From the NCBI RefSeq assembly GCF_001456955.1, contig NZ_KQ758470.1, positions 1 to 64,000 on the forward strand: a stretch of 64,000 bases of DNA, read 5' to 3'. Shown piece by piece: positions 13,232 through 49,379 of the stretch. This DNA is from Microbacterium enclense. GTDB taxonomy: Bacteria > Actinomycetota > Actinomycetes > Actinomycetales > Microbacteriaceae. Within the stretch, counting starts at the first letter, position 1; each line of letters starts with the position of its first letter. The position numbers were made by a program, and so were the translations under genes. A model generated the notes under the pieces. That model made no database searches and was not told the DNA's origin. It saw nothing but the letters and a program-made list of their open reading frames with translations.

Positions 13232-14691
13232 CACTCATCGCGGCTCGGCCGGGTGTGCAGGCCCGGGCCATCGAGTCACATCCGCTGCGTAATCCCGACG
13301 CCGGTTCGCCCGAGGTCATGACGCGTCGCGGGTGGTGGCTCGTCGTGCTCAACTTCCTCATTCCCGGGTCGGCGCAGATCCTCGCCGGCAGTCGCCGTCT
13401 CGGACGGTTCGGCCTCGGCGCGACGCTGGCGATGTGGACGCTGCTCGCGATCGCCGCGTTGGCGGGACTGCTCTGGCCGACGGGACTGTTCACCGTGGTG
13501 ACCGGCTCGTTCCTGCCCGACTTCCTGGCGGCCGTCCGGCCGGTGCCGCTGACCCTCGTGCAGATCGCGCTCTTCGCGTACATCGGCCTGTGGATCGTGC
13601 TCACCGTCGACACCCTCCGCCTCGTGCGTCTCGTGCGGGTCGGACCGCTCGCGCGGGTCGCGATGGCGATCGTGGCCGTGGTCCTGCTGTTCTTCTCGGG
13701 ATCGGGCGCCGCCTGGGCCGCCGGGATCGCGGGCAGCACGCGCGACGCCCTCTCATCGCTGTTCGCCCAGTCGGGGCCCGTCGTCCCGCCCTCCGACGGG
13801 TACTACAACATCCTCCTGCTCGGCGCGGACTCCGGCGAGGGACGCGACTCGATGCGTTTCGACAGCATCTCGGTGGTGTCGATCAACGCCGACACCGGGG
13901 CGACGACCATCACCGGCATCCCGCGCGACATGCCGCACTTCCCGTTCGCGCCCGGCCCGATGCAGGACAGATACCCCGACGGTCACACGGGGTACGCCGA
14001 TCCGACCTGCGGCTGGGGCAGCGGTATCAACCAGCTGAAGACCGAGGTCGAGGTCTGCCAGGACGGCGACGCGCTGTACCCCGACGCGAAAGCGAATGAC
14101 TCCGAGCCCGGCATCGAGGCGACGAAGGATGCCGCGGAGGGCATCCTCGGCATCCAGATCCCGTACTACGTGCTCATCGACATGAAGGGCTTCGCCGAGA
14201 TGATCGACGCGCTCGGCGGCGTCGACATCACCGTGCAGGAGCGCCTCCCGAAGGGCGGGCCCGCGTACGACGGCCAGCCCGTCGACGACTGGGCCTTCGG
14301 CTGGATCGAGCCCGGACAGCAGCACATGGACGGCGACACCGCGCAGTGGTACGCCCGGTCGCGCTACACGACGAGCGACTTCGATCGCATGCGGCGCCAG
14401 CGCGAGCTGCAGGAAGCGGTCCTCGCGCAGTTCACCCCGCAGGTCGTGCTGACGCGCTTCCAGGAGGTGGCGAAGTCGACCACCAGCCTCGTCCAAACCG
14501 ATCTGCCGCAGTCGCTCATCGCTCCCACGCTCGTCGACCTCGCGCTCAAGGCCAAGGACCAGACCATCAACACCCTCGAACTCACCCCCGCGGGCGGGGT
14601 CGATGAATTCGACCCCGACTACGCCCAGGTGCAGCAGATGGTGCGTGACGCGCTGCACCCGGCCTCCGAGACGGAGGCGCCGGCATCATGA
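13228..14691 (+). CDS. LytR-CpsA-Psr (LCP) family glycopolymer transferase
   Basis: LCP proteins transfer lipid-linked anionic or neutral glycopolymers onto peptidoglycan outside the membrane. The 487-aa protein has an N-terminal region with about four hydrophobic segments (residues 30-165, for example [19 protein letters not shown]). An extracytoplasmic LCP domain starts near residue 190: [22 protein letters not shown] with the conserved Arg/Asp, ITGIPRDM, then the late [20 protein letters not shown] with the Arg cluster. The GTG 13228 start overlaps purE; ATG 13318 is an alternative giving 457 aa. It heads the surface-glycan locus. The multi-helix N-terminus is longer than the single anchor of most LCP proteins. 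Confidence 0.88.
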
Positions 14692-15791
14692 CCGTTTCCC
14701 TGCGCGTCGTCCTCGACCAGTTGGTGGCCCCGACGTCGCCCGATCTCGCCGAGGCGTCGGCATCGCTCACCGAAGCCCTCATCGCCACCGCCCCGCGCGG
14801 TTGCGACGTCTCGGCCATCGTGCCGGCGCCCGGCATCCCCGACACCGCCGCGGTCGCGGGGCTCAGTTCCGAGACGCGGCTCGCGGTGCGCCGGCGCGAG
14901 CTCGCGGCATCCTGGCAGCTCGGTGTCGCCCCCGGCATCGGCAGGGGGCTCATCCACTCGCCGACGGCGTTGGCCCCGCTCGTTCGCCACGACCGCGTCA
15001 ACGAGACGCACCAGATCGTCGTGACGCTGTGGGAGCTTCGCGCCTGGGAGACCCCGGAGGAGCTGCCGAAGGCCGAGATCCTCGCGTGCCGCGCTCTGCT
15101 CGCGCGCGTGACCAAGCACGCCGACGCCGTCGTCGTGCCCACGCACGCGATGGCCGAACGTCTCGCCGAGGTCGCCAAGAGCAAGCTGTCGAAGAAGGTG
15201 CGCGTCATCGGCGGCGCGCCCGCGGCCGGTATGCGCGTGCCCTCGGATGCCGTGGGGCGCCTCCGTGCGCTCGATCTGCCGTCGTCGTTCCTCGTGCTCG
15301 CCGGGGGAGCGGCACCCTCCGACGGGCTGGCCGCCGCCTTCGCCGCCGTCGTCGCCGCAAAGTGGGAGGGCGAGGTCGTCGTCCTCGATGTGCCCGAGGG
15401 TGAGGAGCCGGCGGTCGCCGACATCGCCGCAGCCTCCGGCCTCGCCGAAGGCCGCGTGCACAGCCGTGGGGCGCTCGACCGGTGGGATCGCGCGGCCGTG
15501 CTCTCGCACGCGTCGGTGTTCGTCACGGCGTGCGGCCGGACCGACTGGCCGTGGCGCGCGGTCGACGCGCTCGCCGTCGGCGTGCCCATCGTCGCCGTCG
15601 ACACCGCGGTGCACCGCGAGGTGCTCGCCGACGCCGCCGCCTTCGCGCCCGCCGAGGATCTCGGAAACGCGCTGGCGCGTGCGCTGGGGGAGGACGCCGA
15701 GCGCCTGCGCGTGCTCGCCGGCGACCGTGCGAAGGGCTTCGCCTGGAACGCCGCCGCCGATCGCGTGTGGGCTCTGCACGCGGAGCTGTGA
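14688..15791 (+). CDS. Glycosyltransferase, GT-B type (family 4-like)
   Basis: The 367-aa protein overlaps the LCP stop by 4 bp (ATGA). It resembles actinobacterial mannosyl/glucosyl transferases of GT4 type. The N-terminal half has a HADAVVVPTHAMAERLAE segment, and the C-terminal half has SFLVLAGGAAPSDGLAAAFAAV, SHASVFVTACGRTDWPWRAVDALAVGVPIVAVDTAVHREVL and a typical final helix. The acidic donor-binding EGFGLP motif of classic GT4 enzymes is not seen, so the donor sugar and activity are uncertain. Confidence 0.65.
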   Translation: MTVSLRVVLDQLVAPTSPDLAEASASLTEALIATAPRGCDVSAIVPAPGIPDTAAVAGLSSETRLAVRRRELAASWQLGVAPGIGRGLIHSPTALAPLVRHDRVNETHQIVVTLWELRAWETPEELPKAEILACRALLARVTKHADAVVVPTHAMAERLAEVAKSKLSKKVRVIGGAPAAGMRVPSDAVGRLRALDLPSSFLVLAGGAAPSDGLAAAFAAVVAAKWEGEVVVLDVPEGEEPAVADIAAASGLAEGRVHSRGALDRWDRAAVLSHASVFVTACGRTDWPWRAVDALAVGVPIVAVDTAVHREVLADAAAFAPAEDLGNALARALGEDAERLRVLAGDRAKGFAWNAAADRVWALHAEL

Positions 15792-15833: not shown

Positions 15834-16784
15834 ATGACTGAACGCGTCGGGATCGTCGTCCGCACCCGGCAGCGACCGGAGTTCCTGCGGCGCGCGCTGG
15901 CCGACATCCGGGCGCAGTCGTTCGGCGACGTCCGCGTCGTCGTCGTGAACGACGGAGGAGACGTCGCCGAGGTCGAGGGAGTCGTGGTCGCCTCCGGCCT
16001 CGACGCGGCGGCGGTTCACCATATCGCTCCGGGCGACGGGGGCCGCTGCATCGCGGCGAACGTCGGCGTCCGCGACGCGGGCACCGAGTACGTCGTGCTG
16101 CACGACGACGACGACCGCTGGCATCCGGAGTTCCTGGCGCGCACCGTCGCATGGCTCGACGCCCACCCTGCCGACCTGGCGGTGGCCGTGCCCACGGAGA
16201 TCATCTACGAAGAGCAGCGCGAGGGCTCGTGGACCGAGGTCGGGCGGGCTCCGTTCTGGGCCGGCATGCAACGCATCTCGCTGACGGAGATGCTGAGTGT
16301 GAACCGCGCGGTGCCCATCTCCGTGCTCTACCGTCGCTCCCTCCACGACGACGTCGGATGGTACGACGAGACCCTCGACGCCGTGGAGGACTGGGACCTC
16401 TATCTGCGCATCCTTCGTCGCGGCGACATCGCTTTCCTCCCCGGCGAGGCGCTCGCGTTCTGGACGCAGAGACCGGATGCCACCGGCCTCGACGCCAACA
16501 GCATGTTCGCACTGACCGAGGAGCACAGGGTCGACGACGCGCGCGTGCGCGACCGGGCGCTCTCGGAATGGGTGCGGCGTGAGGGCGCAGGCATGCCGCT
16601 CTACATGGCATCGCTGCACGCGGAGACCATCGCGCACATCGACGAGACGGTGGAGCGCGCCGTCCGCCGCTTGCGCGCTGAGATCGCGTCGGACAATCGG
16701 GTCGAGATCGACGCGCATCAGCCCCTGTGGTCACGGGTGCGCCGGATCCGTCGGCTCCTCGGGAGGCGTTCGGGGCGCGCCTAG
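15834..16784 (+). CDS. Family 2 glycosyltransferase
   Basis: The 316-aa cytoplasmic GT-A enzyme starts RVGIVVRTRQRPEFLRRALADI. It carries the donor/metal motif LHDDDDRWHPEFL near residue 88 and the acceptor-side YDETLDAVEDWDLYLRIL near 180. A basic C-terminal tail RIRRLLGRRSGRA may contact the membrane. The EDWDLYLR acidic motif fits an inverting transferase. Sugar specificity cannot be read. Its TAG stop is shared with the promoter of the next gene. Confidence 0.8.
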   Translation: MTERVGIVVRTRQRPEFLRRALADIRAQSFGDVRVVVVNDGGDVAEVEGVVVASGLDAAAVHHIAPGDGGRCIAANVGVRDAGTEYVVLHDDDDRWHPEFLARTVAWLDAHPADLAVAVPTEIIYEEQREGSWTEVGRAPFWAGMQRISLTEMLSVNRAVPISVLYRRSLHDDVGWYDETLDAVEDWDLYLRILRRGDIAFLPGEALAFWTQRPDATGLDANSMFALTEEHRVDDARVRDRALSEWVRREGAGMPLYMASLHAETIAHIDETVERAVRRLRAEIASDNRVEIDAHQPLWSRVRRIRRLLGRRSGRA

Positions 16785-16787
16785 AAT
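16782..16787 (+). promoter_or_regulatory. -10 box overlapping the stop codon of gene 15834
   Basis: TAGAAT, a near-consensus box, lies 7 nt before ATG 16795. Its first three bases are the TAG stop of the upstream gene. Confidence 0.5.
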
Positions 16788-16794
16788 CGGTGGA

Positions 16795-19092
16795 ATGCGC
16801 CGTGCGATAAGGAGCCGTGTCCGTCGTCTGCGAGGGTCGCGGGTGCTCGGTCCCGTCGTCCGCTCCGTCGATCGCCTCTGGTGGGCTCGGACCATCGCAC
16901 GCTCGGCTGTCGTGGACAGTGAGTTCTATGCCGCGCAGCTCGGGCTGCGGCGGCTCCCGCGGTCTCTGGTCATCGCGCACTACGTCGTGAGCGGGTTCCG
17001 CCGCGGAATGAGCCTGAACCCGCTCTTCGACGACATCGTCGCCGGCGGCGAGCTCCCCGAAGTCATGCGGGTTCCGGCCCTCTACGCATACCTCCTGAGC
17101 GAACGCGAGACGGTGCGTATTCACCCGTGGTGGGATGCCGAGGAGCATGGGCGCACCGTCGGTGGCCCCGCTCTCGAGCATGTGTGGGCACATCGCGACG
17201 AGCTCATCCGTCTGCGTGTCGCCGGTCGGGAGGCGTCCCTGACGGTCTCCGAGGTGCGCCGACTCGCGATTGCCTCCGCTCGATCGTGGCGTCGTCACCG
17301 GGTCGCGCGAGCCGCGACACCGTCTCCGACGGCGACGGGACTCGTGCGGCCGGTGCAAGCGCGTGATCGCAGGTACGCCCGCAAGGTCGAGCAGGCGGCT
17401 GCCCGCGCGGCCGGGCCGCGCCGGGAGAGCGTCGTCGTCCCGCTCGTCGGAGTGGATTCCGCGCAATGGGTGTCCGCTCATCTGTTGACGCGTGTCGTCC
17501 CCGAAGTGGTCCTGCACGGTCACCCACGCCGTGCCCCCTGGACGCGGGTGCTGGGCGAAGCGGCCACGGTGCTGCCCGCGACGACCATCGTGGCACTCGA
17601 CCCCCGCGCCGAGTTCACCGACGCCGAGGTCGACGCTCTGCTCGAAGCCGTCGACGAGGATCACGCTGTCATGCCCGCTCACCGTTCGCAGGACGGCACC
17701 GTGCACGGCATCGGAGGAGCGGAGACGGGGGGACGCTCGCCGTGGGGCATCCTCTCGCACCACCCCGTGGACGACCTCGACGCGCTGGAAGCCGTCGTCA
17801 CGGTTCCGCTCCTTCACGGCCGGAGTGTCGCGTTGCGCCGACGCGCACTGCTCGACGTGCTCGAAGGAGACGCACCGGATACCACGGCGGCCTTCGCCCG
17901 ATCGCTTCGCACGCGCGTCGGCATGCGTGTGCTCACCTCTCTGCGGCCCGTCTTCGACGAGCCGTTGCACGTGTTCGACGAGAAGACACCCGGTCCGCGC
18001 GGCGGGGGCGGACAGCAGGATCGAGACGCGGCATCCGTGTTCCTGGATGCCGCCGGCTACGACGTCCTCACATGGCGCCCGGCCGCCGACGGCACCGTCG
18101 AGCCGCGTCTGCAATGGCGTCGGCCCCACCCCGGGGCGGAGCGGTGGGCCATCAAGATCTGCGCTCCCGCGGGTCGTCAGGGGGCCGTCTGGGGCGATAT
18201 GCACTTCGCGCGCGGCCTCGCGTCGGCCCTCCGTCGCCGTGGGCACACGGTGGTCATCGACGCGTTCGACGCGCGGGGGCGGCGCACGGCGTACCTGGAC
18301 GATGTGAACGTCGTCGTGCGTGGCCCGTACCGCATCGACCCCCTGCCGACGGGCGTGAATCTGCAGTGGATCATCAGCCACCCGGACGAGATCACGCGCG
18401 CGGAGATGGCGGGCTTCGACAGAGTATTCGCAGCGTCGGAGAGGTGGTCCCGGCTGGTCCGGCAGCGCTGGGGCATCCCCGTGACGCCCCTTCTCGAAGC
18501 GACCGACACGGATCTGTTCCATCCGAGCGGTGTCCAGCGAACCGACGAGATCGTCTTCGTCGGGACCGCTCGGGGTATCGCGCGGCCGAGTGTCGTCGCT
18601 CCACTTCGGGCCGGGATACCGGTGCGCGTCTACGGACCGGACTGGAGACCCTTCATCTCGCAATCCGCCATCGCCGCGCGTACCCTCAGCCACGCCGACC
18701 TGCCGCGGCGATACGAGTCCGCCGCCATCGTCTTGAACGACCAGTGGCCGGCCATGAGACAGCACGGGTTCATCGCCATGCGTCCGTTCGACGTGATGGC
18801 TGTCGGCGGACGGGTCATCTCCGAGGATGTCGACGGGATCGAAGAGGTGTTCGGCGGGGCGGTGCTGACGTACCGCGATGAAGAGCACCTCGTCGAGATG
18901 CTCCGCGCGGACCCCGACGAGATCTTCCCCGACGCCACGACCATGGCGCGCATCTCGGAGCGCGTGCGGCGTGAGCATTCGTTCGACGCACGCGCCACGG
19001 TCCTCGAAGAGGCGGCTGCCGCTCACCGGCGACCGGTGGCCACCCGTGATCGCGGACGCCCGTCACAGGATGGACGGGATGCCGCCCTCTAA
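16795..19092 (+). CDS. CgeB-like glycosyltransferase with N-terminal extension
   Basis: The 765-aa protein has two parts. Residues 35-90 (EFYAAQLG, then HYVVSGFRRGMSLNPLFD) resemble the short module that precedes many surface-polysaccharide glycosyltransferases, with the HYxxxGxxxGxxPxPLFD pattern. A middle part of unknown type follows. Residues 450-760 resemble CgeB/GT4-like transferases: WAIKICAPAGRQGAVWGDMHFARGL, LQWIISHPDEITRAEM, IVFVGTARG, VYGPDWRPF, then QHGFIAMRPFDVMAVGGRVISEDVDGIEEVF near 655-690. It is likely a cytoplasmic glycan-assembly enzyme; donor and acceptor are unknown. ATG 16795 is set by the promoter-like box. Confidence 0.7.
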   Translation: MRRAIRSRVRRLRGSRVLGPVVRSVDRLWWARTIARSAVVDSEFYAAQLGLRRLPRSLVIAHYVVSGFRRGMSLNPLFDDIVAGGELPEVMRVPALYAYLLSERETVRIHPWWDAEEHGRTVGGPALEHVWAHRDELIRLRVAGREASLTVSEVRRLAIASARSWRRHRVARAATPSPTATGLVRPVQARDRRYARKVEQAAARAAGPRRESVVVPLVGVDSAQWVSAHLLTRVVPEVVLHGHPRRAPWTRVLGEAATVLPATTIVALDPRAEFTDAEVDALLEAVDEDHAVMPAHRSQDGTVHGIGGAETGGRSPWGILSHHPVDDLDALEAVVTVPLLHGRSVALRRRALLDVLEGDAPDTTAAFARSLRTRVGMRVLTSLRPVFDEPLHVFDEKTPGPRGGGGQQDRDAASVFLDAAGYDVLTWRPAADGTVEPRLQWRRPHPGAERWAIKICAPAGRQGAVWGDMHFARGLASALRRRGHTVVIDAFDARGRRTAYLDDVNVVVRGPYRIDPLPTGVNLQWIISHPDEITRAEMAGFDRVFAASERWSRLVRQRWGIPVTPLLEATDTDLFHPSGVQRTDEIVFVGTARGIARPSVVAPLRAGIPVRVYGPDWRPFISQSAIAARTLSHADLPRRYESAAIVLNDQWPAMRQHGFIAMRPFDVMAVGGRVISEDVDGIEEVFGGAVLTYRDEEHLVEMLRADPDEIFPDATTMARISERVRREHSFDARATVLEEAAAAHRRPVATRDRGRPSQDGRDAAL

Positions 19093-19095
19093 GCT
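19090..19095 (+). promoter_or_regulatory. -10 box overlapping the stop codon of gene 16795
   Basis: TAAGCT lies 7 nt before GTG 19103. Its first three bases are the TAA stop of the upstream gene, the second such case in a row. Confidence 0.45.
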
Positions 19096-19102
19096 CGACT
19101 CC

Positions 19103-20341
19103 GTGCGTTCACTCCTCCGACGGGTCGTCTGGCAGATCAACGCGATCCGCCACCGTGATCCGCTCTCCCCGGCTGTTTTCGTCCGCCTCTTCGGCGCGCG
19201 CCGCCGACGCTCCTGGGATCCGACGGTGCGACCGCGCCGCATCGTGGTGCTTCGCAGCGACGAGATCGGCGACACCACGACCAGCCTCGCGCTGTTCGCC
19301 GCGATCCGAGAGCAGTGGCCTCAGGCGACCGTGCACTTCGTGGTCAAGCCCGGCCCCGCCACGATGTTCCACGCCACGCCGACGGTCGATCGCGTCATCG
19401 AGTGGACGCCGATCACCGAGGGATCCGCCCTCAAGCGCCAGATTCTGACCGCGAGGCAGGCCCTGCGCCGCTTCGGTCTGCGCGGATACGACCTCGCCAT
19501 CCTGCCGCGATGGGACTTCGACGACACCCCGATCCGTTACCTCGCGGTGGCTTCGCGGGCTCGGTCCGTCGTGGGCTTCGCGCCCGTGCCCGATCGTGAA
19601 CCGGTCTGGTTCGGTCCGCAGGATCAGCTGCTGACCGACGTCATCTCACGGGGCACCACCCCGCGCCTGACCGTCGGCCAGCTGCAGCGCGTGGCCGAAT
19701 ACCTGGGCCTGCCGTGGCGGGAGCACAGGCAGCCGCCCATCGGGAACGCTCTCTTCGACACCTCCGACCTGCGGGCGGCCACAGAGAAGGCGGCACTGGA
19801 CGACACCTCCGGAATCGTGGTCGGGCTGGGCATCGGCGCCCGCGATGCGAAGCGGCAGTGGCCCGTCGAGGACCTCGCCGAGGTCATGCAACGCGTGGCC
19901 GCCGACCGCCCCGTCGCCGTCCAGATCCTGGGCGGCGGCGTCGACACGGACCGCGCGCAGCAGCTCGTGGCCCTCCTCCGCGACCACGGCATCCCCGCCG
20001 TCGACCTCGCGGGCAGACTCAGCTTGAGCGAGAGCGCCGCCGCGATCTCACGCTCCGACCTGTTCATCGGCAACGATTCCGGCCTGCAGCACATCTCCAG
20101 CAGCCTCGAGGTGCCGACGGTCGTGGTGACGTGCCACCCCGCGACCGGCTCGCCGTGGAGTGACAACGCGCCCGAGCGCTTCGGTCCGTGGTCGGCGCGC
20201 AGCGCCCTGCTCCAGCCCGCCCGCCCTGCCGAGGGATGCAGCGACGAGTGCATCTCGCGCGAGGCTCACTGCATCCGCGCGGTGCGTCCCGACGAGGTCA
20301 CCGAGGCCGTCGAAGGCCTCCTCCGGGAACCGCTCGCCTGA
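19103..20341 (+). CDS. Family 9 glycosyltransferase (heptosyltransferase-like)
   Basis: GT9 enzymes transfer ADP-heptose or related sugars. The 412-aa protein has the family start RIVVLRSDEIGDTTTSLALFAAI, where the acidic/Gly loop normally binds the acceptor. It continues with VHFVVKPGPATMF, and the C-terminal donor half has VGLGIGARDAKRQWPVEDLAEVM and LFIGNDSGLQHISSSLEVPTVVV. A Cys-rich tail (CSDECISREAHC) follows. It lies directly before hldE-gmhA, which makes a heptose donor plausible. ATG 19079 and ATG 19070 are in-frame alternatives; GTG 19103 is preferred because of the box 7 nt upstream. Confidence 0.85.
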   Translation: MRSLLRRVVWQINAIRHRDPLSPAVFVRLFGARRRRSWDPTVRPRRIVVLRSDEIGDTTTSLALFAAIREQWPQATVHFVVKPGPATMFHATPTVDRVIEWTPITEGSALKRQILTARQALRRFGLRGYDLAILPRWDFDDTPIRYLAVASRARSVVGFAPVPDREPVWFGPQDQLLTDVISRGTTPRLTVGQLQRVAEYLGLPWREHRQPPIGNALFDTSDLRAATEKAALDDTSGIVVGLGIGARDAKRQWPVEDLAEVMQRVAADRPVAVQILGGGVDTDRAQQLVALLRDHGIPAVDLAGRLSLSESAAAISRSDLFIGNDSGLQHISSSLEVPTVVVTCHPATGSPWSDNAPERFGPWSARSALLQPARPAEGCSDECISREAHCIRAVRPDEVTEAVEGLLREPLA

Positions 20342-20403
20342 GTCCGTTACGCTCGTTCGGTCCGGCCGCCCTCGGTCCGCTCGCCCACGTCTGGAAAACA
20401 CCT

Positions 20404-21888
20404 ATGTCAGCACTGCCGTCGATCACCCCGCAACACATCCTCGGCTTCGAGGGCGCACGGGTGGTCGTGATCGGCGACGCCATGCTGGACCGCTACGTCG
20501 CGGGTGCCGTCGATCGCATCTCGCCCGAGGCGCCCATCCCCGTCCTGCGGGTACGTCGCGACCACAGCGTCGCCGGGGGCGCGGCGAATGCCGCGATGAA
20601 CATCGCCGCCCTGGGTGTGCAGACCACCCTCGTCGCCGCGTGGGCCGACGATCAGGCGGGTCGCGAGCTCGGACGGCTTCTCTCCGAAGCCGGGGTCTCG
20701 GCTTCGCCGGTGCGGCGCGGCGCAGCGCCGACCATCGAGAAGCTGCGCGTCGTCGCGGGAATGCAGCAGATCGTCCGCGTGGACCGCGAAGATCTCGAGC
20801 CTCTCGACGCCCCAGGTGTCGACGCCGCGGTCGAGGCCGTTCGCACGGCACTCGGCGACGATCCCTCCCGGGCCGCCATCGTCCTGTCGGACTACGCCAA
20901 AGGCCTGCTCGGCGACGATCTCGTCGCCCGCGTGATCGATCTGGCTCGGGGGCACGGCATCCCGGTCGTCGTGGATCCGAAGTCCGCCGACATCCGCAAG
21001 TACCGCGGTGCGACCATCGTCAAGCCGAACTTCTCCGAGGCGCTGCACATGTCGGGCCTCCACGCCGACGCGCCGGACGAGGGGATCCTCGACGTCATCG
21101 CCGACCGCCTGCTCGTCGACGGCATCGAGTCCCTCGCGGTCTCACTCTCCGCCGTCGGCGTCGAGGTGATCGAGGCCTCGGCGCGCACCCGCATCCCGAC
21201 CCGTGCGCGGCTGGTCGCCGACGTCTCCGGGGCCGGCGACTCGATGATCGCGGGCATCGCCGCGGGACTCGCCTCGGGGCTCACGACGCTCCAGGCCGTG
21301 CAGGTGGGCAACATGGCCGCCGGAATCGCCTGTGGACGGCCCGGGACGGCCGTCGTCTCCAGCGCCGACCTCTTGAACGAGCTGCTCGTGGCCTCGTCGC
21401 CGGAGGAGCGCCCCGGCACCATCGAGGACTGGGATGAGCTCGCCCGACTCGTCGCCGTCGAGAAGGATGCGGGCAAGACGGTCGTCTTCGCCAACGGCGT
21501 GTTCGACCTCCTGCACGCGGGACACGTGGCGCTTCTGCGCGAGGCGAGATCGCTGGGCGACGTGCTGGTCGTGGGGGTGAACTCCGATGAGTCGACAGCG
21601 CGCCTCAAAGGGCCCACGCGACCGCTGCAACCACAAGGCGACCGGATGAGTGTGCTCGAGGCGGTGCGCTACGTGGACTTCGTGACCGTCTTCGGAGAAG
21701 ACACGCCACGCGAGCTCATCCGCACCATCCGTCCCGACGTCATCGTCAAGGGTTCCGACTACCGCCCCGATCAGGTCGTCGGCGGGGAGGACGCCAGGGC
21801 CTGGGGTGGTCGCGTGCACATCGTCAATCTGCTCGACGGGGTGTCCACCACTCGTCTGTCGCAGGGCCAGCAGGTACGGCGCGGCTGA
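20404..21888 (+). CDS. hldE: Bifunctional heptose-7-phosphate kinase / heptose-1-phosphate adenylyltransferase
   Basis: HldE phosphorylates D-glycero-beta-D-manno-heptose 7-phosphate at C1 and later adenylates heptose 1-phosphate to ADP-heptose. The 494-aa length fits a two-domain fusion. Residues about 15-320 are a PfkB/ribokinase domain with RVVVIGDAMLDRYVAG, GGAANAAMNIAALG (about 57) and the anion-hole VSGAGDSMIAGIAAGLASG (about 272). Residues 355-494 are the nucleotidyltransferase with VVFANGVFDLLHAGHVALL (the HAGH signature) and VKGSDYRPDQVVG. gmhA follows after 31 bp and gmhB lies convergent. A TACGCT at 20348 may drive it with a leader of about 45 nt. The kinase and transferase are separate proteins in many Gram-positives; here they are fused. 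Confidence 0.93.
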   Translation: MSALPSITPQHILGFEGARVVVIGDAMLDRYVAGAVDRISPEAPIPVLRVRRDHSVAGGAANAAMNIAALGVQTTLVAAWADDQAGRELGRLLSEAGVSASPVRRGAAPTIEKLRVVAGMQQIVRVDREDLEPLDAPGVDAAVEAVRTALGDDPSRAAIVLSDYAKGLLGDDLVARVIDLARGHGIPVVVDPKSADIRKYRGATIVKPNFSEALHMSGLHADAPDEGILDVIADRLLVDGIESLAVSLSAVGVEVIEASARTRIPTRARLVADVSGAGDSMIAGIAAGLASGLTTLQAVQVGNMAAGIACGRPGTAVVSSADLLNELLVASSPEERPGTIEDWDELARLVAVEKDAGKTVVFANGVFDLLHAGHVALLREARSLGDVLVVGVNSDESTARLKGPTRPLQPQGDRMSVLEAVRYVDFVTVFGEDTPRELIRTIRPDVIVKGSDYRPDQVVGGEDARAWGGRVHIVNLLDGVSTTRLSQGQQVRRG

Positions 21889-21919
21889 CGCCGCGGACGA
21901 CCCGAACGAAGGAGAACCC

Positions 21920-22501
21920 ATGGGCATCCTGCAGGACAACCTCCGTGAGAACGCGCATCGCATGTCGGCGCTGGCCGACGATGCGGCATTCGGTTCGGCG
22001 TTCGACCGCGCGGCTGAGATCATGACGACCTCGCTGCGGGCCGGCGGCACGCTCCTGGCGTGCGGCAACGGTGGATCGATGACGAACGCCCAGCACTTCG
22101 CGGAAGAGCTGACGGGACGTTTCCGAGGGAACCGTCCCCCTCTGCGAGCGATGGCCATCTCGGATCCGTCGCACCTCACCTGCGTCGCCAACGACTACGG
22201 CTACGAGTTCGTCTTCTCGAAGTTCGTCGAGGCCTTCGCTCGACCGGGTGACGTGCTTCTCGCCCTGTCGACGAGTGGGAAGTCGCCGAACGTCCTGCGC
22301 GCGGCCGAGGCGATGAAGACCGCGGGCGGCCTCGTCGTCGCGTCGTCCGCGACGGCGTCGTCGCCCCTCGGTGCGCTGGCCGACGTCGTCATCGAACTCG
22401 GCGCCAGCCGGTGGGCCGATCGCGTGCAGGAATCCGAGCTCGTCGTCATCCACTCGCTCATGCAGGCGATCGAGGACGACTTCGGCTACTCGGCGGAGTG
22501 A
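21920..22501 (+). CDS. gmhA: Sedoheptulose-7-phosphate isomerase
   Basis: GmhA turns sedoheptulose 7-phosphate into D-glycero-D-manno-heptose 7-phosphate, the first step of heptose synthesis. The 193-aa protein is a SIS-domain isomerase: LLACGNGGSMTNAQHFAEELTGRF carries the active-site His/Glu pair, LALSTSGKSPNVLRAAEA binds phosphate, and ELVVIHSLMQAIE supplies the late His. A clear GAAGGAG ribosome binding site lies 6-7 nt before ATG 21920, fitting internal translation in an operon with hldE. The last 44 bp overlap the 3' end of gmhB on the other strand. Confidence 0.94.
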   Translation: MGILQDNLRENAHRMSALADDAAFGSAFDRAAEIMTTSLRAGGTLLACGNGGSMTNAQHFAEELTGRFRGNRPPLRAMAISDPSHLTCVANDYGYEFVFSKFVEAFARPGDVLLALSTSGKSPNVLRAAEAMKTAGGLVVASSATASSPLGALADVVIELGASRWADRVQESELVVIHSLMQAIEDDFGYSAE

Positions 22502-23081
22502 TGCCGAGCGCTAGCCTCACGTCGGCGGCGAATGCCGCCAGGCTCGGCGAGGTGAGATCGGCCGCGGGATCCGCGGTGGGGGACACGCGAACCGTCGCGC
22601 CCCCACCGGTGCGTCGCGCGAGACGCCGACCCATCTCCACGTCGGAGTCCGTGTCGCCGATCATGACCGACAGCGTGCCATCCAGGTCGGGATTCGCGGC
22701 GAGGTAGGAAGTCGCCATTCCCGGTGACGGTTTGCGGCACTCGCACCCTTGCGCGTCGAGATGCGGGCAGAACTGGATGGCATCGATGCGCCCGCCGGCC
22801 GCCGACACCTCCTCGCGCATGCGCGTGTGGACGGCATTGAGGTCCGCTTCGCTCATCAGACCTTTGCCGACCCCCTGCTGATTGGTGACGACGACGATGC
22901 GCGGTGCCCACCGGGCGAGCATCCTCAGGGCATCGAGCACACCGGGCTCGAAGTGGAACTCGTCCCACGTGCGGACGTAGCCGCCCATGATGCGTGTGTT
23001 GATGACCCCGTCGCGGTCGAGGAAGAGGGTCCAGGATCGACCTTCGCGTTCTGCCACCATCTCCCGAACGCCGATCGTCAC
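22458..23081 (-). CDS. gmhB: D-glycero-D-manno-heptose 1,7-bisphosphate 7-phosphatase
   Basis: This HAD phosphatase removes the 7-phosphate between the two HldE steps. The 207-aa product has FLDRDGVINTR with the nucleophile Asp, VVTNQQGVGKGLM, all four zinc ligands in FCPHLDAQGCECRKPSPGM (C-x-H...C-x-C), and MIGDTDSDVEMG. GTG 23081 is chosen because TACCGT lies 7 nt upstream; an ATG at 23141 would place the start inside the divergent promoter. It is convergent with and overlaps gmhA, and divergent from the LGFP gene. A C-terminal Ser/Arg/Pro tail is extra. Confidence 0.92.
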   Translation of the reverse strand: MTIGVREMVAEREGRSWTLFLDRDGVINTRIMGGYVRTWDEFHFEPGVLDALRMLARWAPRIVVVTNQQGVGKGLMSEADLNAVHTRMREEVSAAGGRIDAIQFCPHLDAQGCECRKPSPGMATSYLAANPDLDGTLSVMIGDTDSDVEMGRRLARRTGGGATVRVSPTADPAADLTSPSLAAFAADVRLALGITPPSSRSRPRSPA

Positions 23082-24675: not shown

Positions 24676-25224
24676 ATGAATCCCCCAAGGTCAGGGTGGT
24701 CGACGATGAGCAGCCGTCGACGACGGAGCTTTTCCGCGGCATCCGTGCTCATTCTCGCGGTTGTCGTGAGCGGCTGCGCGACGCCCGGCGGCGGGGCTGC
24801 GTCGCCCGTGGCGACGGAGACATCGGTCTCCGCCAGCGCGACGCCGACACCCGCGCCGACGCAGTCCGACGTACCGGAGGTCGCTCCGACGCCCACCGGT
24901 GAGCCGATACCGAACCCGGTTCCCACGGTGACGGGCTCGGCCTCCGTCACGATCGTGAACTGGCACGGCGATGGACGCATCCTGTCGGCATCGGGACTCG
25001 TCACGGGCGCGCAGCAGACCGATGGACGGTGCACGCTGACCGCGACATCATCGAGCGGGCAGGTGCTCACCGGGGAGGTAGAGGCACAGTCGACACCGGC
25101 CGCCATCAACTGCGGCCTCATCGACATCCCCGCACCGACGGGAAGTTGGCAGCTGGTCCTGTCGTATCGGGACGGCGACGATCTCCTATCGTCCGCGCCG
25201 GTCACGGTCGAACAGCCGAGATGA
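24676..25224 (+). CDS. Small secreted lipoprotein of unknown function
   Basis: The 182-aa product has a twin-Arg-rich start (SSRRRRSF), a hydrophobic core and the lipobox VVVSGC, so it should be lipid-anchored outside the membrane. A Thr/Pro/Ser-rich linker follows (PTPAPTQSD), then a compact domain of about 90 residues with two Cys (GRCTLTATSSSGQV and INCGLIDIPAPTGSWQLVLSY) that looks like a beta-sandwich. ATG 24676 has GGAG 4 nt upstream; GTG 24646 and ATG 24706 are alternatives. It overlaps the next LGFP gene by 4 bp, so the two probably act together. Confidence 0.7.
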   Translation: MNPPRSGWSTMSSRRRRSFSAASVLILAVVVSGCATPGGGAASPVATETSVSASATPTPAPTQSDVPEVAPTPTGEPIPNPVPTVTGSASVTIVNWHGDGRILSASGLVTGAQQTDGRCTLTATSSSGQVLTGEVEAQSTPAAINCGLIDIPAPTGSWQLVLSYRDGDDLLSSAPVTVEQPR

Positions 25225-27887
25225 TTCGTCCGCGGTCCTCCCTCCCGGCCGTCGTCATCGCCATCATCGCGATGGTCGTCGGTCTCCTGCCGGTGCTCGC
25301 GCCTCCGGTCGGAACAGCCGCCACCGCCGCGGACGCACGGAACTTCCAGGACGGATTCCTCATCACGGACGGCAACTTCCTGAATGCCGCCTCCATGAAC
25401 GCCGAAGAGATCCAGGCTTTCCTGAACGGTAAGGTGACCTCGTGTCGGGGCACGAACGGGATGCCGTGCCTCAAGGACTACACGGCGCAGTCCACCCCGG
25501 TACTTGCGGCTGACACGTACTGTGGCGCGTACCCCGGCGGCACGATGAGCGCCTCGCGCATGATCGCCGAGGTGTCGTTGGCGTGCGGGATCAGCCCGAA
25601 GGTCCTGCTGGTCATGCTGCAGAAAGAGCAGGGCCTGGTCACCGACACCTCGCCCACTCCGCGGCAGTACTCGGCCGCGCTCGGGCAGGGCTGTCCGGAT
25701 GGCGCCGCGTGCGATCCGCAGTACGCCGGCTTCTTCTACCAGGTCTACGGCGCGGCCCGTCAGTTCCAGATTTATCTGAAGAACCCCCGCTGGTACGCGT
25801 ACCAGCTCGGCTGGAACAACATCCTGTACCAGGCCACACCGCCCGACAACGACCGTGTGTGCGGCACCAAACGCGTCAACATCACGAACGACGCCACGCG
25901 AGCGCTGTACATCTACACGCCCTACACGCCGAATCAGGCTGCGCTGAACAATCTGTACGGCACGGGGGACTTCTGCTCGGCGTACGGGAACCGCAACTTC
26001 TGGCGCCTGTTCACGGATTGGTTCGGCGACCCGACGGCGGACCCCGTGAAAGGGGAGTACGCCCGCGTCTGGGCATCCCTGGGTGGATCCGGCGGCCTGC
26101 TGGGCCCGCCCACCTCGGCCGAGCAATGCTTCGGCCGGTGGTGCCAGCAGTCGTTCCGCAACGGAACCATCTTCTGGTTCCCCGGACGAGGAGTCTTCGG
26201 AGTCCCCACCATCATCGAGTCGATGTGGCGGAACCTGGGCTTCATCGACGGCGTGGTCGGAATGCCCACAGGAGCCCCGGTGTGCGAAGGCGATCTGACC
26301 TGCGTGCAGTCCTTCGACGGCGGTCTCCTCGCCGCCGATCGCGTGGGAGGGAACCTCGTCGGTCGGAGCGTCGAATCCGCATGGACGGCGTCCGGCGGCA
26401 TCAAGCTGGGTGGCGCTCGCGGACCCGAGGTCTGTACGGGCAGCCGATGCGCACAGACGTTCGCGCATGGAGCGCTCTTCTCCGGGGGCACCGCGACCGC
26501 GGTGACAGAGCCCATCTTCACCGCCTGGACGGCCGCCGGCGGGAGTTCCGGGAGCCTCGGATTCCCCTCCGCGAATGCGGATTGCGTACCGGCCGGGTGT
26601 ACGCAACGGTTCGCCGGCGGCCTCATCGCCTCCGGACGCGACCACGCCGAGGTGGTCCCGGAGCCGATCGCCACGAAATACCTCGGCGTGGGCGGCCCGG
26701 CCGCGGTCGGTGGTCCGGTCGCACCGCAGGTGTGCGGCGGCGGCTTCTGCAACCAGGAATTCGAAACGGCCAGAATCGATACCTCCGCGCAGGGGACCTT
26801 CATCACCATGCAGTGGTTCTTCGGTGCCTGGAAGGCCGAGAACTTCGAGAAGGGTCGTCTGGGAAGACCTTCGTCGGACATGGTGTGTATCCCGCGGACG
26901 TGTTATCAGCCGTTCGCGGGGGGCACGCTCTCGGGTACACCTTTCGGCGGGGTACTTCCGGTCTACGGGGCCTACCGCGACTTCTGGATGGCTTCAGGTG
27001 GGCCGACGGGCACGTTCGGGCTGCCGACCACCGCGGAGATCTGCAACGGGCGCAACTGCACCCAGTCGTTTGAAACCGGAACGATCGCGTGGACGCCCAC
27101 GTATGGCATGGTGCCGGTGACCGGGCGGTTCCTCGCGCCGTGGCGTCAGTCGGGCGGGGGGTCCGGGCCGCTGGGAGCACCGCGTTCGGCCTCGTCCTGT
27201 ACGGGCGCCGTCTGTTCGCAGCAGTTCCAGGGTGGTGTCCTCACCTCGACACCGAAGGGTGCGATCGTGCCCGTCACGGGCGAGTACAACGACGTCTGGA
27301 TCCGGACAGGGGGTGCCTCCGGGCAGCTGGGTCTTCCTACGGCGGGTGAAACCTGCAACGGGCATGACTGTTCCCAGCCCTTCGAGAAGGGCGTCATCGT
27401 CTGGACGCCGGCTCACGGTGCCATCGTTGTCTCCGGGTGGTTCGTCGCTCCGTGGCAGGCGAACGGCGCCGGTCAGGGCAGGTTGGGGGCACCCATCGCC
27501 GAAATGGTCTGCATCCCTCAGACGTGCTACCAAGCATTCGAAGGAGGCACGCTTTCTGGCTCACCGTCGGCTGGGGTCATCCCGGTCTGGGGTGCGTACC
27601 GCGACGTGTGGATGGCGTCCGGCGGACCGTCCGGCGCTCTGGGACTGCCGATCCGCGCCGAGGCGTGCTTCGGGAACTATTGCGAGACGCCGTTCGAAAA
27701 GGGAACCATCATCTGGCGGCCATCCGTGGGAGCGATCGACGTCATGCCCCCCGTCTACGCCCGGTGGGTCGACTCCGGCGGAGCATCGGGTCGCTACGGG
27801 TTGCCGCTGCAGAAGGCCTCGACGACCAATGCGACCGTCTCGCAGCGGTTCGAAAAAGGGACCATCTCCGTCGGCGGTGCGCGCTGA
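25221..27887 (+). CDS. Large secreted protein: lysozyme-like N-terminal domain and about eleven LGFP repeats
   Basis: The 888-aa protein has a signal peptide (about 1-35). A domain at about 40-280 follows, with FLITDGNFLNAASMNAEEIQAFL and KVLLVMLQKEQGLVTD then YSAALGQGCP. The Glu after VMLQK in a helix-like context recalls transglycosylase/lysozyme folds; this is inference. Residues 285-885 are repeats of about 52 aa with GGxxGxLGxP, Cys pairs and FxxGTIxWxP. A block of about four repeats is internally duplicated: the segment near 26880-27000 recurs near 27505-27625. It could be a wall-anchored enzyme remodelling or binding the glycan layer. It overlaps the lipoprotein gene (ATGA). Confidence 0.75.
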   Translation: MIRPRSSLPAVVIAIIAMVVGLLPVLAPPVGTAATAADARNFQDGFLITDGNFLNAASMNAEEIQAFLNGKVTSCRGTNGMPCLKDYTAQSTPVLAADTYCGAYPGGTMSASRMIAEVSLACGISPKVLLVMLQKEQGLVTDTSPTPRQYSAALGQGCPDGAACDPQYAGFFYQVYGAARQFQIYLKNPRWYAYQLGWNNILYQATPPDNDRVCGTKRVNITNDATRALYIYTPYTPNQAALNNLYGTGDFCSAYGNRNFWRLFTDWFGDPTADPVKGEYARVWASLGGSGGLLGPPTSAEQCFGRWCQQSFRNGTIFWFPGRGVFGVPTIIESMWRNLGFIDGVVGMPTGAPVCEGDLTCVQSFDGGLLAADRVGGNLVGRSVESAWTASGGIKLGGARGPEVCTGSRCAQTFAHGALFSGGTATAVTEPIFTAWTAAGGSSGSLGFPSANADCVPAGCTQRFAGGLIASGRDHAEVVPEPIATKYLGVGGPAAVGGPVAPQVCGGGFCNQEFETARIDTSAQGTFITMQWFFGAWKAENFEKGRLGRPSSDMVCIPRTCYQPFAGGTLSGTPFGGVLPVYGAYRDFWMASGGPTGTFGLPTTAEICNGRNCTQSFETGTIAWTPTYGMVPVTGRFLAPWRQSGGGSGPLGAPRSASSCTGAVCSQQFQGGVLTSTPKGAIVPVTGEYNDVWIRTGGASGQLGLPTAGETCNGHDCSQPFEKGVIVWTPAHGAIVVSGWFVAPWQANGAGQGRLGAPIAEMVCIPQTCYQAFEGGTLSGSPSAGVIPVWGAYRDVWMASGGPSGALGLPIRAEACFGNYCETPFEKGTIIWRPSVGAIDVMPPVYARWVDSGGASGRYGLPLQKASTTNATVSQRFEKGTISVGGAR

Positions 27888-31624: not shown

Positions 31625-31657
31625 CTCGGCACCCCTCGGCGACGAACCGGGGGGCGT
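31625..31657. terminator. Short hairpin between convergent genes
   Basis: In the 42-bp spacer, CCCCTCGG and CCGGGGGG can pair across a short loop near 31634-31656. It lies between the epimerase stop and the wzt stop and may end transcription from both sides. The stem has a bulge. Confidence 0.35.
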
Positions 31658-32886
31658 CAGCGTGCGCCGGTGGCGGAGCCTTCGACGTCGATGCGGAGGT
31701 ACCCCGTCGCCCGCGAGTCGAACTCGACGTTGAAGGATGTCGCCTGCATGATGTTGTGCAGATCGTTCCCGTTGCCATCGATGAGTGTGGCGTTGACAAA
31801 GTATTTCCCGCCGGCGAGCGGCGGGTCCTTCAAGACGAACGACACCTCCGTCTGCCCGACGATCGGCTTCACGGGGGTCTTGAGCCAATCCGTCCCCGTC
31901 ACGAACATTTTGTGACCCATGTGGTCGTCGATCTGGATCCGGCACCCCCACGCGTCCAGACGCTGAGAGGCGAGGGTCAATCGAACCTCAAGGTTGTCTC
32001 CGGGCTGCAGCGCTTCACCGACAGCACGGCCAATGACCGTCGCGGTCACCTCACCGACGGATCCTTGAGGGCGTACGGCCGTCGGCTCCTTCGCGTCACG
32101 CTCAGCCACACGACGCTCTTCGAGCAGGTCGCGGAACCGCGCGACCGCCGTCGAGGGCTTTCCGTCGAAGATGACCTCGCCGTGATGCAGGAGCACCGCA
32201 CGGCTGCAGAGCTCGACAACCTGATCGAGGGAGTGCGTCACCAGGATGATCGTGCGACCTTCCTTCTGGAAGTCGCGGATGCGATCCATGCACTTACGCT
32301 GGAACGCCTCGTCACCCACCGCCAGCACCTCGTCGACGAGGAGCACGTCAGGGTCCGTGTGGACGGCCACCGCGAATGCGAGTCGCACGTACATACCCGA
32401 CGAGTAAAACTTCACCTGGGTGTCGATGAAGTCGCCGATGGCCGCGAATGCGACGATGTCGTCGAACTGCGCTTCGGTCTCTTCTCGGCTGAGGCCGAGC
32501 ACCGAGGCATTGAGGAAGACGTTCTCGCGGCCTGTCAGGTCGGGGTGGAAGCCGGCGCCCAGTTCCAGGAGCGCCGCGAGGCGGCCGCGTTCCTCGACGG
32601 TGCCGGACGTCGGATCGACGATGCCGCCGATCACCTTCAGGAGGGTGCTCTTCCCCGACCCGTTGTGGCCGATCAGGCCGATGGTCTCACCGGCGTAGAT
32701 GTCGAGGTCGACGTTCCGCAGCGCCCAGAATTCCTTCTTGTGTCGGCGTCCGGCGCGTCCGAGCGTGACGACCCTTTCCTTGATCGACGAGTCCTTGCGG
32801 ATGGTGAACTTCTTCGATACGTCTCGTATGCGGGCGACTTCCGGGCGGATGACGTCATCCGCAGGGGCCGAGGGGGAAGGGTGCAT
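31657..32886 (-). CDS. wzt: Polysaccharide ABC exporter ATP-binding protein with C-terminal substrate domain
   Basis: It energises export of a lipid-linked polysaccharide. In the 409-aa protein, residues 20-250 are the ATPase with Walker A GHNGSGKST, signature YSSGMYVRLAFA, Walker B DVLLVDEVLAVGD and the switch His in LVTHSLDQV. After an Ala/Glu/Arg linker, residues about 280-405 form a Wzt_C-like beta-sandwich (GDNLEVRLTLAS, VSFVLKDPPLAGGKYFVNATL). In E. coli O9a this domain reads the capped non-reducing end of the glycan. It is therefore likely that a terminal modification licenses export here. It lies 4 bp downstream of wzm. Confidence 0.9.
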   Translation of the reverse strand: MHPSPSAPADDVIRPEVARIRDVSKKFTIRKDSSIKERVVTLGRAGRRHKKEFWALRNVDLDIYAGETIGLIGHNGSGKSTLLKVIGGIVDPTSGTVEERGRLAALLELGAGFHPDLTGRENVFLNASVLGLSREETEAQFDDIVAFAAIGDFIDTQVKFYSSGMYVRLAFAVAVHTDPDVLLVDEVLAVGDEAFQRKCMDRIRDFQKEGRTIILVTHSLDQVVELCSRAVLLHHGEVIFDGKPSTAVARFRDLLEERRVAERDAKEPTAVRPQGSVGEVTATVIGRAVGEALQPGDNLEVRLTLASQRLDAWGCRIQIDDHMGHKMFVTGTDWLKTPVKPIVGQTEVSFVLKDPPLAGGKYFVNATLIDGNGNDLHNIMQATSFNVEFDSRATGYLRIDVEGSATGAR

Positions 32887-32890
32887 GACG

Positions 32891-33802
32891 TCACAGCTCC
32901 TGGGCGAAGTTGCCCTGCAGGCGGATGAAGAGGCGGTGGCAGATCAGAAGAAGGACTGCACCGATGGCGAATGCGATTCCCATGCGCAGGAGCAGGTCCG
33001 AAGGCCACTCGGCAGAGTCGCCGGCGACCCAGAAGGCACGCTGGAAACCGAGAACCGCAAGGGTGAGCGGGTTGTTCGTGTAGATGTCGAGGACCGCCTG
33101 AGAAGGGATGAGCGTTTTCGCCATCTGCCACGAGTAGACGATCGGGCTCGCCCAGAACAGCAGCATCGTGATCACCTCGACCAGGTACTGCACGTCGCGA
33201 AGGTACACGTTCACAGCGCTGAAGAGCAGGCCGAACGCTGTGCCGTACACGACGATGAGAGCGACCGCCGGGATCGCATAGGCCAGCTGAGGATGGAAGG
33301 GAGGCTTCGCGACCAGCAGTGTCGCTGCGATGAGGACCAGAAGCTGGATGCCGAAATTGAACAGCGCTGATCCCACGCTCGCGAGAGGGAAGACCTCTCG
33401 TGGCAGGTAGACCTTCTTCACGAGCCCGGCATTCGCGAGGACGGAACCCGTGCCCCCGACGACGATCTCCGTGAAGAGCCCGATCGCGCACAGACCGGCG
33501 AAGATGTAGACGGCGAAATCGGGGATACTCCGTGCCGCCTGGAGGAACTGCCCCATCACGACGAAGTACACGGCGAGCTGGATGAGGGGCCGGATCAACG
33601 ACCAGAAGAATCCGAGCGTGGAGTCTTTGTAACGTGCCTTCAGGTCGCGCCGCACCAGCAGGTTCAGCATTTCCCGGTGCGAGAAGATGGCGCGAACCGC
33701 ACCCCACCACGCTCCACGGCCGGTGATTGCCCCCACCGGAGTGAGGGGGGTCGCGGCGAGACGCTCCAAACGGAGCGCGGCCTGTTCATTTGCACGTGAC
33801 AT
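32891..33802 (-). CDS. wzm: Polysaccharide ABC exporter permease
   Basis: The 303-aa protein has six hydrophobic segments of the ABC-2/Wzm type. It starts with a cytoplasmic region LLVRRDLKARYKDSTLGFFWSLI, which is the typical interfacial helix, then IRPLIQLAVYFVVMGQF. It ends in LLICHRLFIRLQGNFAQEL. ATG 33802 is set by TAGAAT 7 nt upstream; the longer frame to 33991 has no signal or domain. It pairs with wzt to form the pore for the finished chain. Confidence 0.9.
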   Translation of the reverse strand: MSRANEQAALRLERLAATPLTPVGAITGRGAWWGAVRAIFSHREMLNLLVRRDLKARYKDSTLGFFWSLIRPLIQLAVYFVVMGQFLQAARSIPDFAVYIFAGLCAIGLFTEIVVGGTGSVLANAGLVKKVYLPREVFPLASVGSALFNFGIQLLVLIAATLLVAKPPFHPQLAYAIPAVALIVVYGTAFGLLFSAVNVYLRDVQYLVEVITMLLFWASPIVYSWQMAKTLIPSQAVLDIYTNNPLTLAVLGFQRAFWVAGDSAEWPSDLLLRMGIAFAIGAVLLLICHRLFIRLQGNFAQEL

Positions 33803-33809
33803 CACCCTG

Positions 33810-33815
33810 ATTCTA
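33810..33815 (-). promoter_or_regulatory. -10 box for wzm-wzt
   Basis: TAGAAT on the minus strand lies 7 nt before ATG 33802. It lets the exporter be transcribed apart from the rml genes 91 bp upstream. Confidence 0.5.
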
Positions 33816-33893
33816 CAGGGCCTACCTTCGGACCCCATGGGCGCGCGAGCGCCAACAGCGGCTGATGCGAGGTCCGTGCCGTTCCGAGGGTCT

Positions 33894-37176
<3,283 letters not shown>

Positions 37177-48179: not shown

Positions 48180-49379
<1,200 letters not shown>

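What the first reader, a model, noticed from the sequence alone, without database searches (positions are those of the whole stretch)
19103..23081. Complete manno-heptose pathway in a Gram-positive wall-glycan locus
gmhA, gmhB with all four zinc ligands, a fused kinase/adenylyltransferase hldE and a GT9 heptosyltransferase-like protein lie together. This pathway is typical of Gram-negative lipopolysaccharide cores and of some S-layer and antibiotic clusters. Here it sits among LCP, Wzm/Wzt and galactofuranose genes, so an ADP-D,D-heptose-containing wall polymer is predicted. No clear hldD is present, so the D,D form may be used directly.
Basis: partly seen in the sequence, partly recalled or inferred. 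Interest (0 to 1): 0.75.

Follow-up and report, generated by a model that had tools for sequence, protein, structure and literature searches.

The report
Heptose-making cassette in wall-sugar locus
A Gram-positive bacterium (a Microbacterium) carries, inside a gene cluster for a wall sugar polymer, a set of genes of the kind Gram-negative bacteria use to make the seven-carbon sugar of their endotoxin, so its wall may contain that sugar, which a chemical analysis can test.

Summary
At 19079-23060 lie a GT9 glycosyltransferase, a two-domain HldE, GmhA, and, convergent and overlapping gmhA by 44 bases, GmhB with a CxH...CxC zinc site. The host is a Microbacterium. Window-type HldE is in 12 of 366 Microbacterium genomes and in one other genus, under purifying selection, beside LCP, LGFP or galactofuranose genes in all 13 loci read. 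One congener, G343, has similar flanks without the cassette (L136). Tested additions: no HldD over the curated cut-off in 12 carriers; GT9 has Arg where E. coli WaaC has Lys192, a change reported for D,D-heptosyltransferases; GT9 is in 27 of 27 HldE-bearing and 0 of 29 examined HldE-lacking congeners; the HldE groups with Gram-negative HldEs, apart from two other actinobacterial kinds. [quoted passage not shown] The enzymes are known kinds; I found no report of this setting. NCBIfam equivalog cut-offs are all missed, and the chemistry is untested.

The parts
19079..20341 (+). GT9 heptosyltransferase-like protein; Asp65 (WaaC Asp13), Arg259 (WaaC Lys192 position), Asp333-Ser-Gly-Leu-Gln-His338 signature; start not proven
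   Evidence: PF01075; alignment to E. coli WaaC/F/Q/U; model pTM 0.82, best Foldseek hits 3tov, WaaF 1psw, WaaC 2h1h
20404..21888 (+). HldE: fused D,D-heptose-7-phosphate kinase and heptose-1-phosphate adenylyltransferase
   Evidence: motifs DVSGAGD, GVFDLLHAGH, LLDGVSTT
21920..22501 (+). GmhA, sedoheptulose-7-phosphate isomerase
   Evidence: PRK00414 183 bits, PRK13936 145; 1x94, 2i22 best
22458..23060 (-). GmhB, heptose-1,7-bisphosphate 7-phosphatase, convergent with gmhA, zinc site CPH...CEC; start not proven
16780..19092 (+). large GT4-like glycosyltransferase (GT4b) just upstream, at this place in 11 of 13 loci
   Evidence: PF13524 62.8 bits
12781..14691 (+). LCP-family protein (glycopolymer to peptidoglycan transfer), true start not fixed
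14688..15791 (+). GT4-type glycosyltransferase (GT4a)
15834..16784 (+). GT2-type glycosyltransferase (GT2a)
25213..27887 (+). protein with LGFP repeats
31657..33853 (-). Wzt and Wzm, ABC glycan exporter
33894..37176 (-). rmlC-rmlD fusion, rmlB, rmlA (dTDP-rhamnose)
48243..49379 (+). UDP-galactopyranose mutase (galactofuranose)
52436..54349 (-). GlfT2-like galactofuranosyltransferase

Best explanation
A Gram-negative-type heptose cassette, probably acquired laterally, sits in the wall-glycan locus of some Microbacterium. [quoted passage not shown] With no HldD, the GT9 transfers the D,D-heptose directly to the growing lipid-linked wall glycan, which Wzm/Wzt exports and LCP ligates to peptidoglycan. 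Shown here: genes, conservation, co-occurrence, key residues, no HldD over the cut-off. Inferred from family knowledge: each reaction, donor, acceptor, export and ligation.
For: All three biosynthetic enzymes in one cassette with catalytic motifs. The order GT9-HldE-GmhA-GmhB(reverse) in all 13 loci read, window included (12 Microbacterium, one other genus), beside LCP, LGFP or Glf genes. GT9 in 27 of 27 HldE-bearing and 0 of 29 examined HldE-lacking genomes; 10 of the 12 window-type carriers have one GT9 only. GT9 fold and residues of heptosyltransferases. HldD over cut-off in 0 of 12 carriers. Arg at the Lys192 position in 12 of 12 window-type GT9s aligned; the 13th, in L029, was not aligned; the D,D link is from PMC3559599. 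HldE in one group with Gram-negative HldEs, SH-aLRT 96. Purifying selection. G343 (L136) has purK, LCP, GT4a, GT2a and an LGFP2-like stretch in a row without the cassette.
Against: No chemistry. All NCBIfam equivalog cut-offs are missed. No report of wall heptose in Microbacterium found in the held library (the last two capped lists). The Lys-to-Arg rule rests on few enzymes; E. coli WaaU has Cys there, the three GT9s of the other locus kind also have Arg, and one of those has Asn for Asp261. The HldD model also rings weakly in all 14 control genomes, so only the cut-off separates. The tree is a quick one, its non-actinobacterial rows few, six of them of odd composition, and the planctomycete a long branch. 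Co-occurrence is weakened by linkage and common descent.
Confidence: 0.7

Rival explanations
1. The donor is ADP-L,D-heptose: an SDR-family protein of the locus or elsewhere acts as a non-canonical 6-epimerase.
For: SDR proteins at 30751-31614, 37261-38394 and 38399-39340 lie in the locus; the second scores 112.9 bits with the HldD model.
Against: That protein scores higher with GalE (135.3) and dTDP-glucose dehydratase (131.5) models, all below cut-off, and similar proteins (72-73% identical) are in genomes without the cassette (L139, L140). The GT9 residue favours D,D.
Confidence: 0.1
2. The cassette makes NDP-heptose for something other than the wall polymer: protein glycosylation, a secreted glycolipid or a small molecule.
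For: Protein heptosylation and the antibiotic septacidin are named as uses (PMC11461863, PMC11573728, main texts read).
Against: In 13 of 13 loci the cassette is beside glycan-locus genes; among the window neighbours scanned I saw glycosyltransferases, export and sugar genes, no antibiotic or autotransporter genes.
Confidence: 0.15
3. GT9 uses another nucleotide sugar and the heptose genes serve a different transferase, such as the large GT4-like protein upstream.
For: GT9 scores are far below the LPS heptosyltransferase cut-offs (64.1 against 134.6); substrate cannot be read from sequence.
Against: Strict GT9-HldE co-occurrence in the genomes tested, heptosyltransferase signature D(T/S)(G/A)xxH, top eight fold hits all GT9 enzymes. 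The GT4-like gene is not at this place in 2 of 13 loci, L123 and L039.
Confidence: 0.1
4. The activated sugar is mainly CDP- or UDP-heptose.
For: Some heptose nucleotidyltransferases are promiscuous.
Against: The promiscuity mark, Arg at position 5 of (F/L)xxGxSTT, is Val in all 13 window-type HldEs; a Salmonella HldE without it is still promiscuous, so this is not decisive.
Confidence: 0.07

Closest known systems
ADP-heptose pathway of Gram-negative LPS core (GmhA, HldE, GmhB, HldD, WaaC/F/Q)
   Same: Same enzymes, two-domain HldE in the same group of the tree, GT9 with the same signature
   Different: No HldD over cut-off, Arg for Lys192, Gram-positive host, wall-glycan locus with LCP and ABC export
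Heptose enzymes of actinobacterial antibiotics (septacidin, hygromycin B) and actinobacterial tridomain synthetases
   Same: Manno-heptose metabolism from sedoheptulose 7-phosphate in actinomycetes
   Different: Known here only from citing text and reference titles (the two originals tried are not held). The other actinobacterial HldE-like proteins put in the tree form two separate groups
[quoted passage not shown]
   Same: Starts from sedoheptulose 7-phosphate; heptose in an envelope without LPS (recalled)
   Different: Kinase and transferase are HddA and HddC. One carrier, G529, has such a set as well, elsewhere (L146, HddA 317.7 of 600 bits, HddC 155.8 of 300)
Two-HldE loci of Microbacteriaceae (seen in this work)
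   Same: HldE, GmhA, GmhB and GT9 together
   Different: Two divergent HldE copies, three GT9s, aldehyde dehydrogenase and SDR in L046; other HldE groups in the tree

Membership tests
HldE (bifunctional heptose kinase/adenylyltransferase) | PfkB kinase and nucleotidyltransferase domains in one chain, full model coverage | tested here: met
   (462 of 475 positions)
HldE (bifunctional heptose kinase/adenylyltransferase) | NCBIfam equivalog cut-off (521 bits) | tested here: not met
   437.5 bits; 0 of 299 genomes sampled in the family meet it
HldE (bifunctional heptose kinase/adenylyltransferase) | (F/L)xxGxSTT, GAGD and HxGH motifs | tested here: met
   13 of 13 window-type sequences
HldE (bifunctional heptose kinase/adenylyltransferase) | Activity on D,D-heptose phosphates | not testable with these tools
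   needs enzyme assay
GmhA | SIS_2 domain, best NCBIfam matches are sedoheptulose-7-phosphate isomerase models | tested here: met
GmhA | NCBIfam equivalog cut-offs | tested here: not met
   183 of 265 and 165 of 209 bits; TIGR00441 cut-off met in 0 of 56 Microbacterium genomes
GmhB | DRDG motif and four zinc ligands CxH...CxC | tested here: met
   12 of 13 loci, 13th cut by contig end
GmhB | NCBIfam equivalog cut-off (PRK08942, 178 bits) | tested here: not met
   137 bits
GT9 heptosyltransferase | Pfam GT9 and signature D(T/S)(G/A)xxH with Asp13 | tested here: met
GT9 heptosyltransferase | Curated cut-off of an LPS heptosyltransferase equivalog | tested here: not met
   best 64.1 of 134.6 bits
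L,D-heptosyltransferase (WaaC, WaaF, WaaQ) | Lys192 | tested here: not met
   Arg in 12 of 12 window-type proteins aligned
ADP-L,D-heptose pathway | HldD | tested here: not met
   over cut-off in 0 of 12 carriers; a non-canonical epimerase is not excluded

The most novel reading that the evidence does not exclude
Some Microbacterium have taken up a Gram-negative-type ADP-heptose cassette and built D-glycero-D-manno-heptose into a peptidoglycan-linked galactofuranose/rhamnose wall glycan, used in the D,D form without HldD. These Gram-positives would then hold ADP-D,D-heptose, the ALPK1 agonist first known as a Gram-negative signal.
Probability: 0.55. Interest if true: 0.65.

Novelty: new variant of a known kind. 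Interest (0 to 1): 0.5.

Why it matters
What heptoses do in the many organisms that have the enzymes is called open in two 2024 commentaries. This locus gives a concrete case in a culturable genus, with one candidate transferase in most carriers and congeners that lack the cassette, so the question becomes a simple sugar analysis. If true, a sugar nucleotide that marks Gram-negatives to innate immunity would also be made by some Gram-positives.

Tried and rejected
Rejected: that the gene set is a chance or decayed cluster (purifying selection, conserved order). Rejected: that the GmhA-like genes in two HldE-lacking genomes (G299, G258) break the link; their neighbours are a ROK-kinase-like protein, a protein with weak mannosylglycerate-hydrolase similarity and, in G299, a LacI-type regulator, so they look catabolic. 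Thought unlikely: the SDR at 37261-38394 as HldD. Led nowhere: promoter and terminator scans (none found); phage records (4 with a match, all under 60% identity); DNA-level search of plasmids (10 records with short matches, none over 80% of the query); paper searches for heptose in Microbacterium walls (a biofilm paper, PMC10892373, passages read, reports heptose in a mixed-community matrix, which proves nothing for Microbacterium). Identity to the window of purK and of other genes goes together over 9 loci for HldE (r 0.89), less for GmhA (0.67) and GT9 (0.62), least for GT4b (0.41): mostly vertical descent with some exchange of transferases would fit; not pursued.

Limits of the counts: the 29 HldE-lacking genomes (no match at E 1e-40) are those listed, 29 of 339, not a random draw; G309 (83% complete) was left out. 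The tree used 63 of 93 distinct HldE sequences (five short matches were dropped there); 40 of 70 other actinobacterial rows were hand-picked for spread, and the non-actinobacterial rows come from plasmid-collection records only. In one search the GmhB alignment was spoiled by wrong ends and is not used; replace it. L029 was left out of the GT9 alignments.

Full report
What is there. The window (GC 64-76% in 2 kb steps) lies on contig C4 of a 3.67 Mb genome. The nearest named relatives of its HldE are in Microbacterium testaceum NS220 (90%), other Microbacterium and one Microbacteriaceae isolate (74-86%), so the host is taken to be a Microbacterium. The cassette is GT9 (19079-20341), HldE (20404-21888) and GmhA (21920-22501) on the plus strand, and GmhB (22458 to about 23060) on the minus strand, its end overlapping gmhA by 44 bases. 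The starts are judged from translations and alignments and are not proven.

Are these the enzymes they seem to be? By Pfam domains, yes. By NCBIfam they are best matched by HldE, GmhA and GmhB models (GmhB also by the broader histidinol-phosphatase domain model), but miss every equivalog cut-off, as do all 299 sampled genomes of the family for HldE. Motifs are in place: DVSGAGD, KLRVVAGxQQIVRxD, GVFDLLHAGH and LLDGVSTT in HldE, 13 of 13 window-type sequences; zinc and DRDG motifs in GmhB. Among solved structures the HldE kinase half matches a D-beta-D-heptose 7-phosphate kinase (4e84; Burkholderia, recalled), GmhA best matches 1x94 and 2i22 (Vibrio and E. coli, recalled), GmhB best matches 4pnh, a heptose bisphosphate phosphatase. 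The beta-type GmhB model scores 137 bits, the alpha-type 80, and HldE belongs to the ADP-beta route, so ADP-beta-D,D-heptose is the expected product.

The transferase. The GT9 is 26% identical to each of three GT9s of the other locus kind. On a MAFFT alignment with E. coli WaaC, WaaF, WaaQ and WaaU, WaaC Asp13 falls on Asp65, Lys192 on Arg259, Glu222 on Asp289, Asp261 on Asp333 and His266 on His338. Arg at the Lys192 place is in 12 of 12 window-type proteins aligned (a further one, L029, was not included) and in the 3 of L046; WaaU has Cys there, and one L046 protein has Asn for Asp261. Merino and colleagues (PMC3559599; abstract, passages and the Discussion with Table 2 read) report Lys192, which touches O5 and O6 of the heptose, in all but one of their L,D-enzyme groups, and Arg or Asn in D,D-enzymes. 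A predicted model (mean pLDDT 77, pTM 0.82) has GT9 enzymes as its eight best Foldseek matches, WaaF 1psw and WaaC 2h1h among them (a loose fit, rmsd 4.7-5.7).

HldD. In the own genome the best HldD match is 93.2 bits against a cut-off of 274.6; over the cut-off in 0 of the 11 other carriers and 0 of 52 HldE-bearing family genomes, while 2 of 14 control genomes pass. Below the cut-off the model rings in every genome searched, all 14 controls too. A non-canonical epimerase cannot be excluded.

Distribution. Family sample: 52 of 299 genomes have an HldE-like protein at E 1e-60, but only two (own and G132 of another genus, which has a second copy of another kind) are of the window kind, at 437.7 and 443 bits against at most 378.5 for the rest. 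Genus: 27 of 366 have an HldE at E 1e-40, 12 of the window kind at 74% identity or more; two of these (G614, G651) also have a full-length copy of another kind and G433 a partial one. Class sample: 27 of 394 at E 1e-60, best apart from the own genome 252.6 bits. GT9 is in 27 of 27 HldE-bearing and 0 of 29 HldE-lacking Microbacterium tested. GmhA is in 27 of 27 and 2 of 29; the two exceptions sit among what look like catabolic genes. These genomes share descent and the genes are linked, so this is support, not proof.

Surroundings. In the window the cassette follows purK, an LCP protein and three glycosyltransferases and precedes LGFP-repeat proteins, a further transferase, an acyltransferase, Wzt/Wzm, a dTDP-rhamnose set, UDP-galactopyranose mutase and a GlfT2-like protein (the name purK rests on the reading of its translation, not on a family search). 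In the 12 related loci the order GT9-HldE-GmhA-GmhB recurs beside LCP, LGFP or Glf genes, with variation in the neighbours; GT4b is missing from its place in L123/L031 and L039. In G132 (L039) the cassette lies by Glf, the GlfT2-like gene and LGFP genes, with no LCP match in the 20 kb read. In G343 (L136), which has no GT9 or GmhA match and no HldE, purK, LCP, GT4a, GT2a and an LGFP2-like stretch follow each other without the cassette; the junction itself was not read further (one search failed). Seven other HldE-lacking genomes show LCP, LGFP, Wzm/Wzt or Glf pieces of such a locus and no cassette gene in the stretch read (L137-L143). So the locus varies like other surface-glycan loci, and the heptose cassette looks like one of its optional modules.

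Origin. In a quick maximum-likelihood tree of 63 HldE sequences the 13 window-type proteins (support 100) group with 9 proteobacterial and 1 planctomycete sequences (96), apart from two actinobacterial groups of 24 and 16. Under one scoring, the nine proteobacterial HldEs have 284-340 bits to the window protein (40-45% identity) and the actinobacterial ones of other kinds at most 249. The window GmhA scores best with PRK00414 (183 bits; PRK13936 145), the GmhA of L046 with PRK13936 (163; PRK00414 125). Lateral uptake from a Gram-negative is the simplest reading; the donor is not identified. GC of the cassette (68-70%) is not foreign, so uptake was probably not recent. HldE, GmhA and GT9 are under purifying selection (dN/dS 0.06-0.27, window against 12 relatives each).

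Which nucleotide? Tang and colleagues (Science 2024, known here through PMC11461863 and PMC11573728, of each part 1 of 2, the main text, read) link Arg at position 5 of (F/L)xxGxSTT to use of CTP and UTP. The window kind has Val there in 13 of 13, which favours ADP; one Salmonella enzyme without Arg is promiscuous all the same.

Known or new? The pathway, the GT9 family and heptose enzymes in actinobacteria are known. A published survey of sugar pathways in 12,939 genomes found ADP-linked L,D-heptose only in Gammaproteobacteria (PMC7725333, abstract start and passages seen); it searched by other means and for the L,D form. My literature searches gave listings, several of them capped (20 of 79, 15 of 22, 8 of 12, 12 of 215, 25 of 226); in those listings I saw no report of this cassette in Microbacterium or of heptose in its wall, and none of the 25 listed mentions Microbacterium. 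The library lacks most subscription journals. I file it as a new variant of a known kind. What is not shown is the chemistry: that heptose is made, that it is D,D, that it is in the wall.

Noticed in passing
L046:2576-14589 and many loci: A different, commoner locus in Microbacteriaceae: two divergent HldE-like proteins some kilobases apart, in L046 with three GT9s, GmhA, GmhB, an aldehyde dehydrogenase and an SDR. The copies fall in separate groups of the tree; 10 of 16 rows of the smaller group show GRSTT, the motif end tied to CTP/UTP use. Product unknown.
   Followed up: partly
L146:9638-13321 (G529): A second heptose set, gmhA-gmhB-hddA-hddC plus a WecG-type transferase; the four heptose genes score below their equivalog cut-offs. 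This carrier seems to have both the ADP-beta and the GDP-alpha route.
   Followed up: partly
L144:7646-13046, L145:5730-9941: GmhA-like SIS isomerases beside ROK-kinase-like and glycoside-hydrolase-like genes, probably catabolic.
   Followed up: partly
G185:C8:149037-149987 (L058): HldE-like gene with an internal TGA beside Wzt/Wzm-type genes: perhaps a decaying copy.
   Followed up: no
L110:2977-6121, L111:2496-5720: Alphaproteobacterial plasmids with HldE, a HAD hydrolase and an AGE-family epimerase together and no annotated GmhA in the stretch read: possibly another route into heptose or a related sugar.
   Followed up: no
window 46162-48117: DUF6541 protein (502 bits) next to glycosyltransferases; function unknown.
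   Followed up: no
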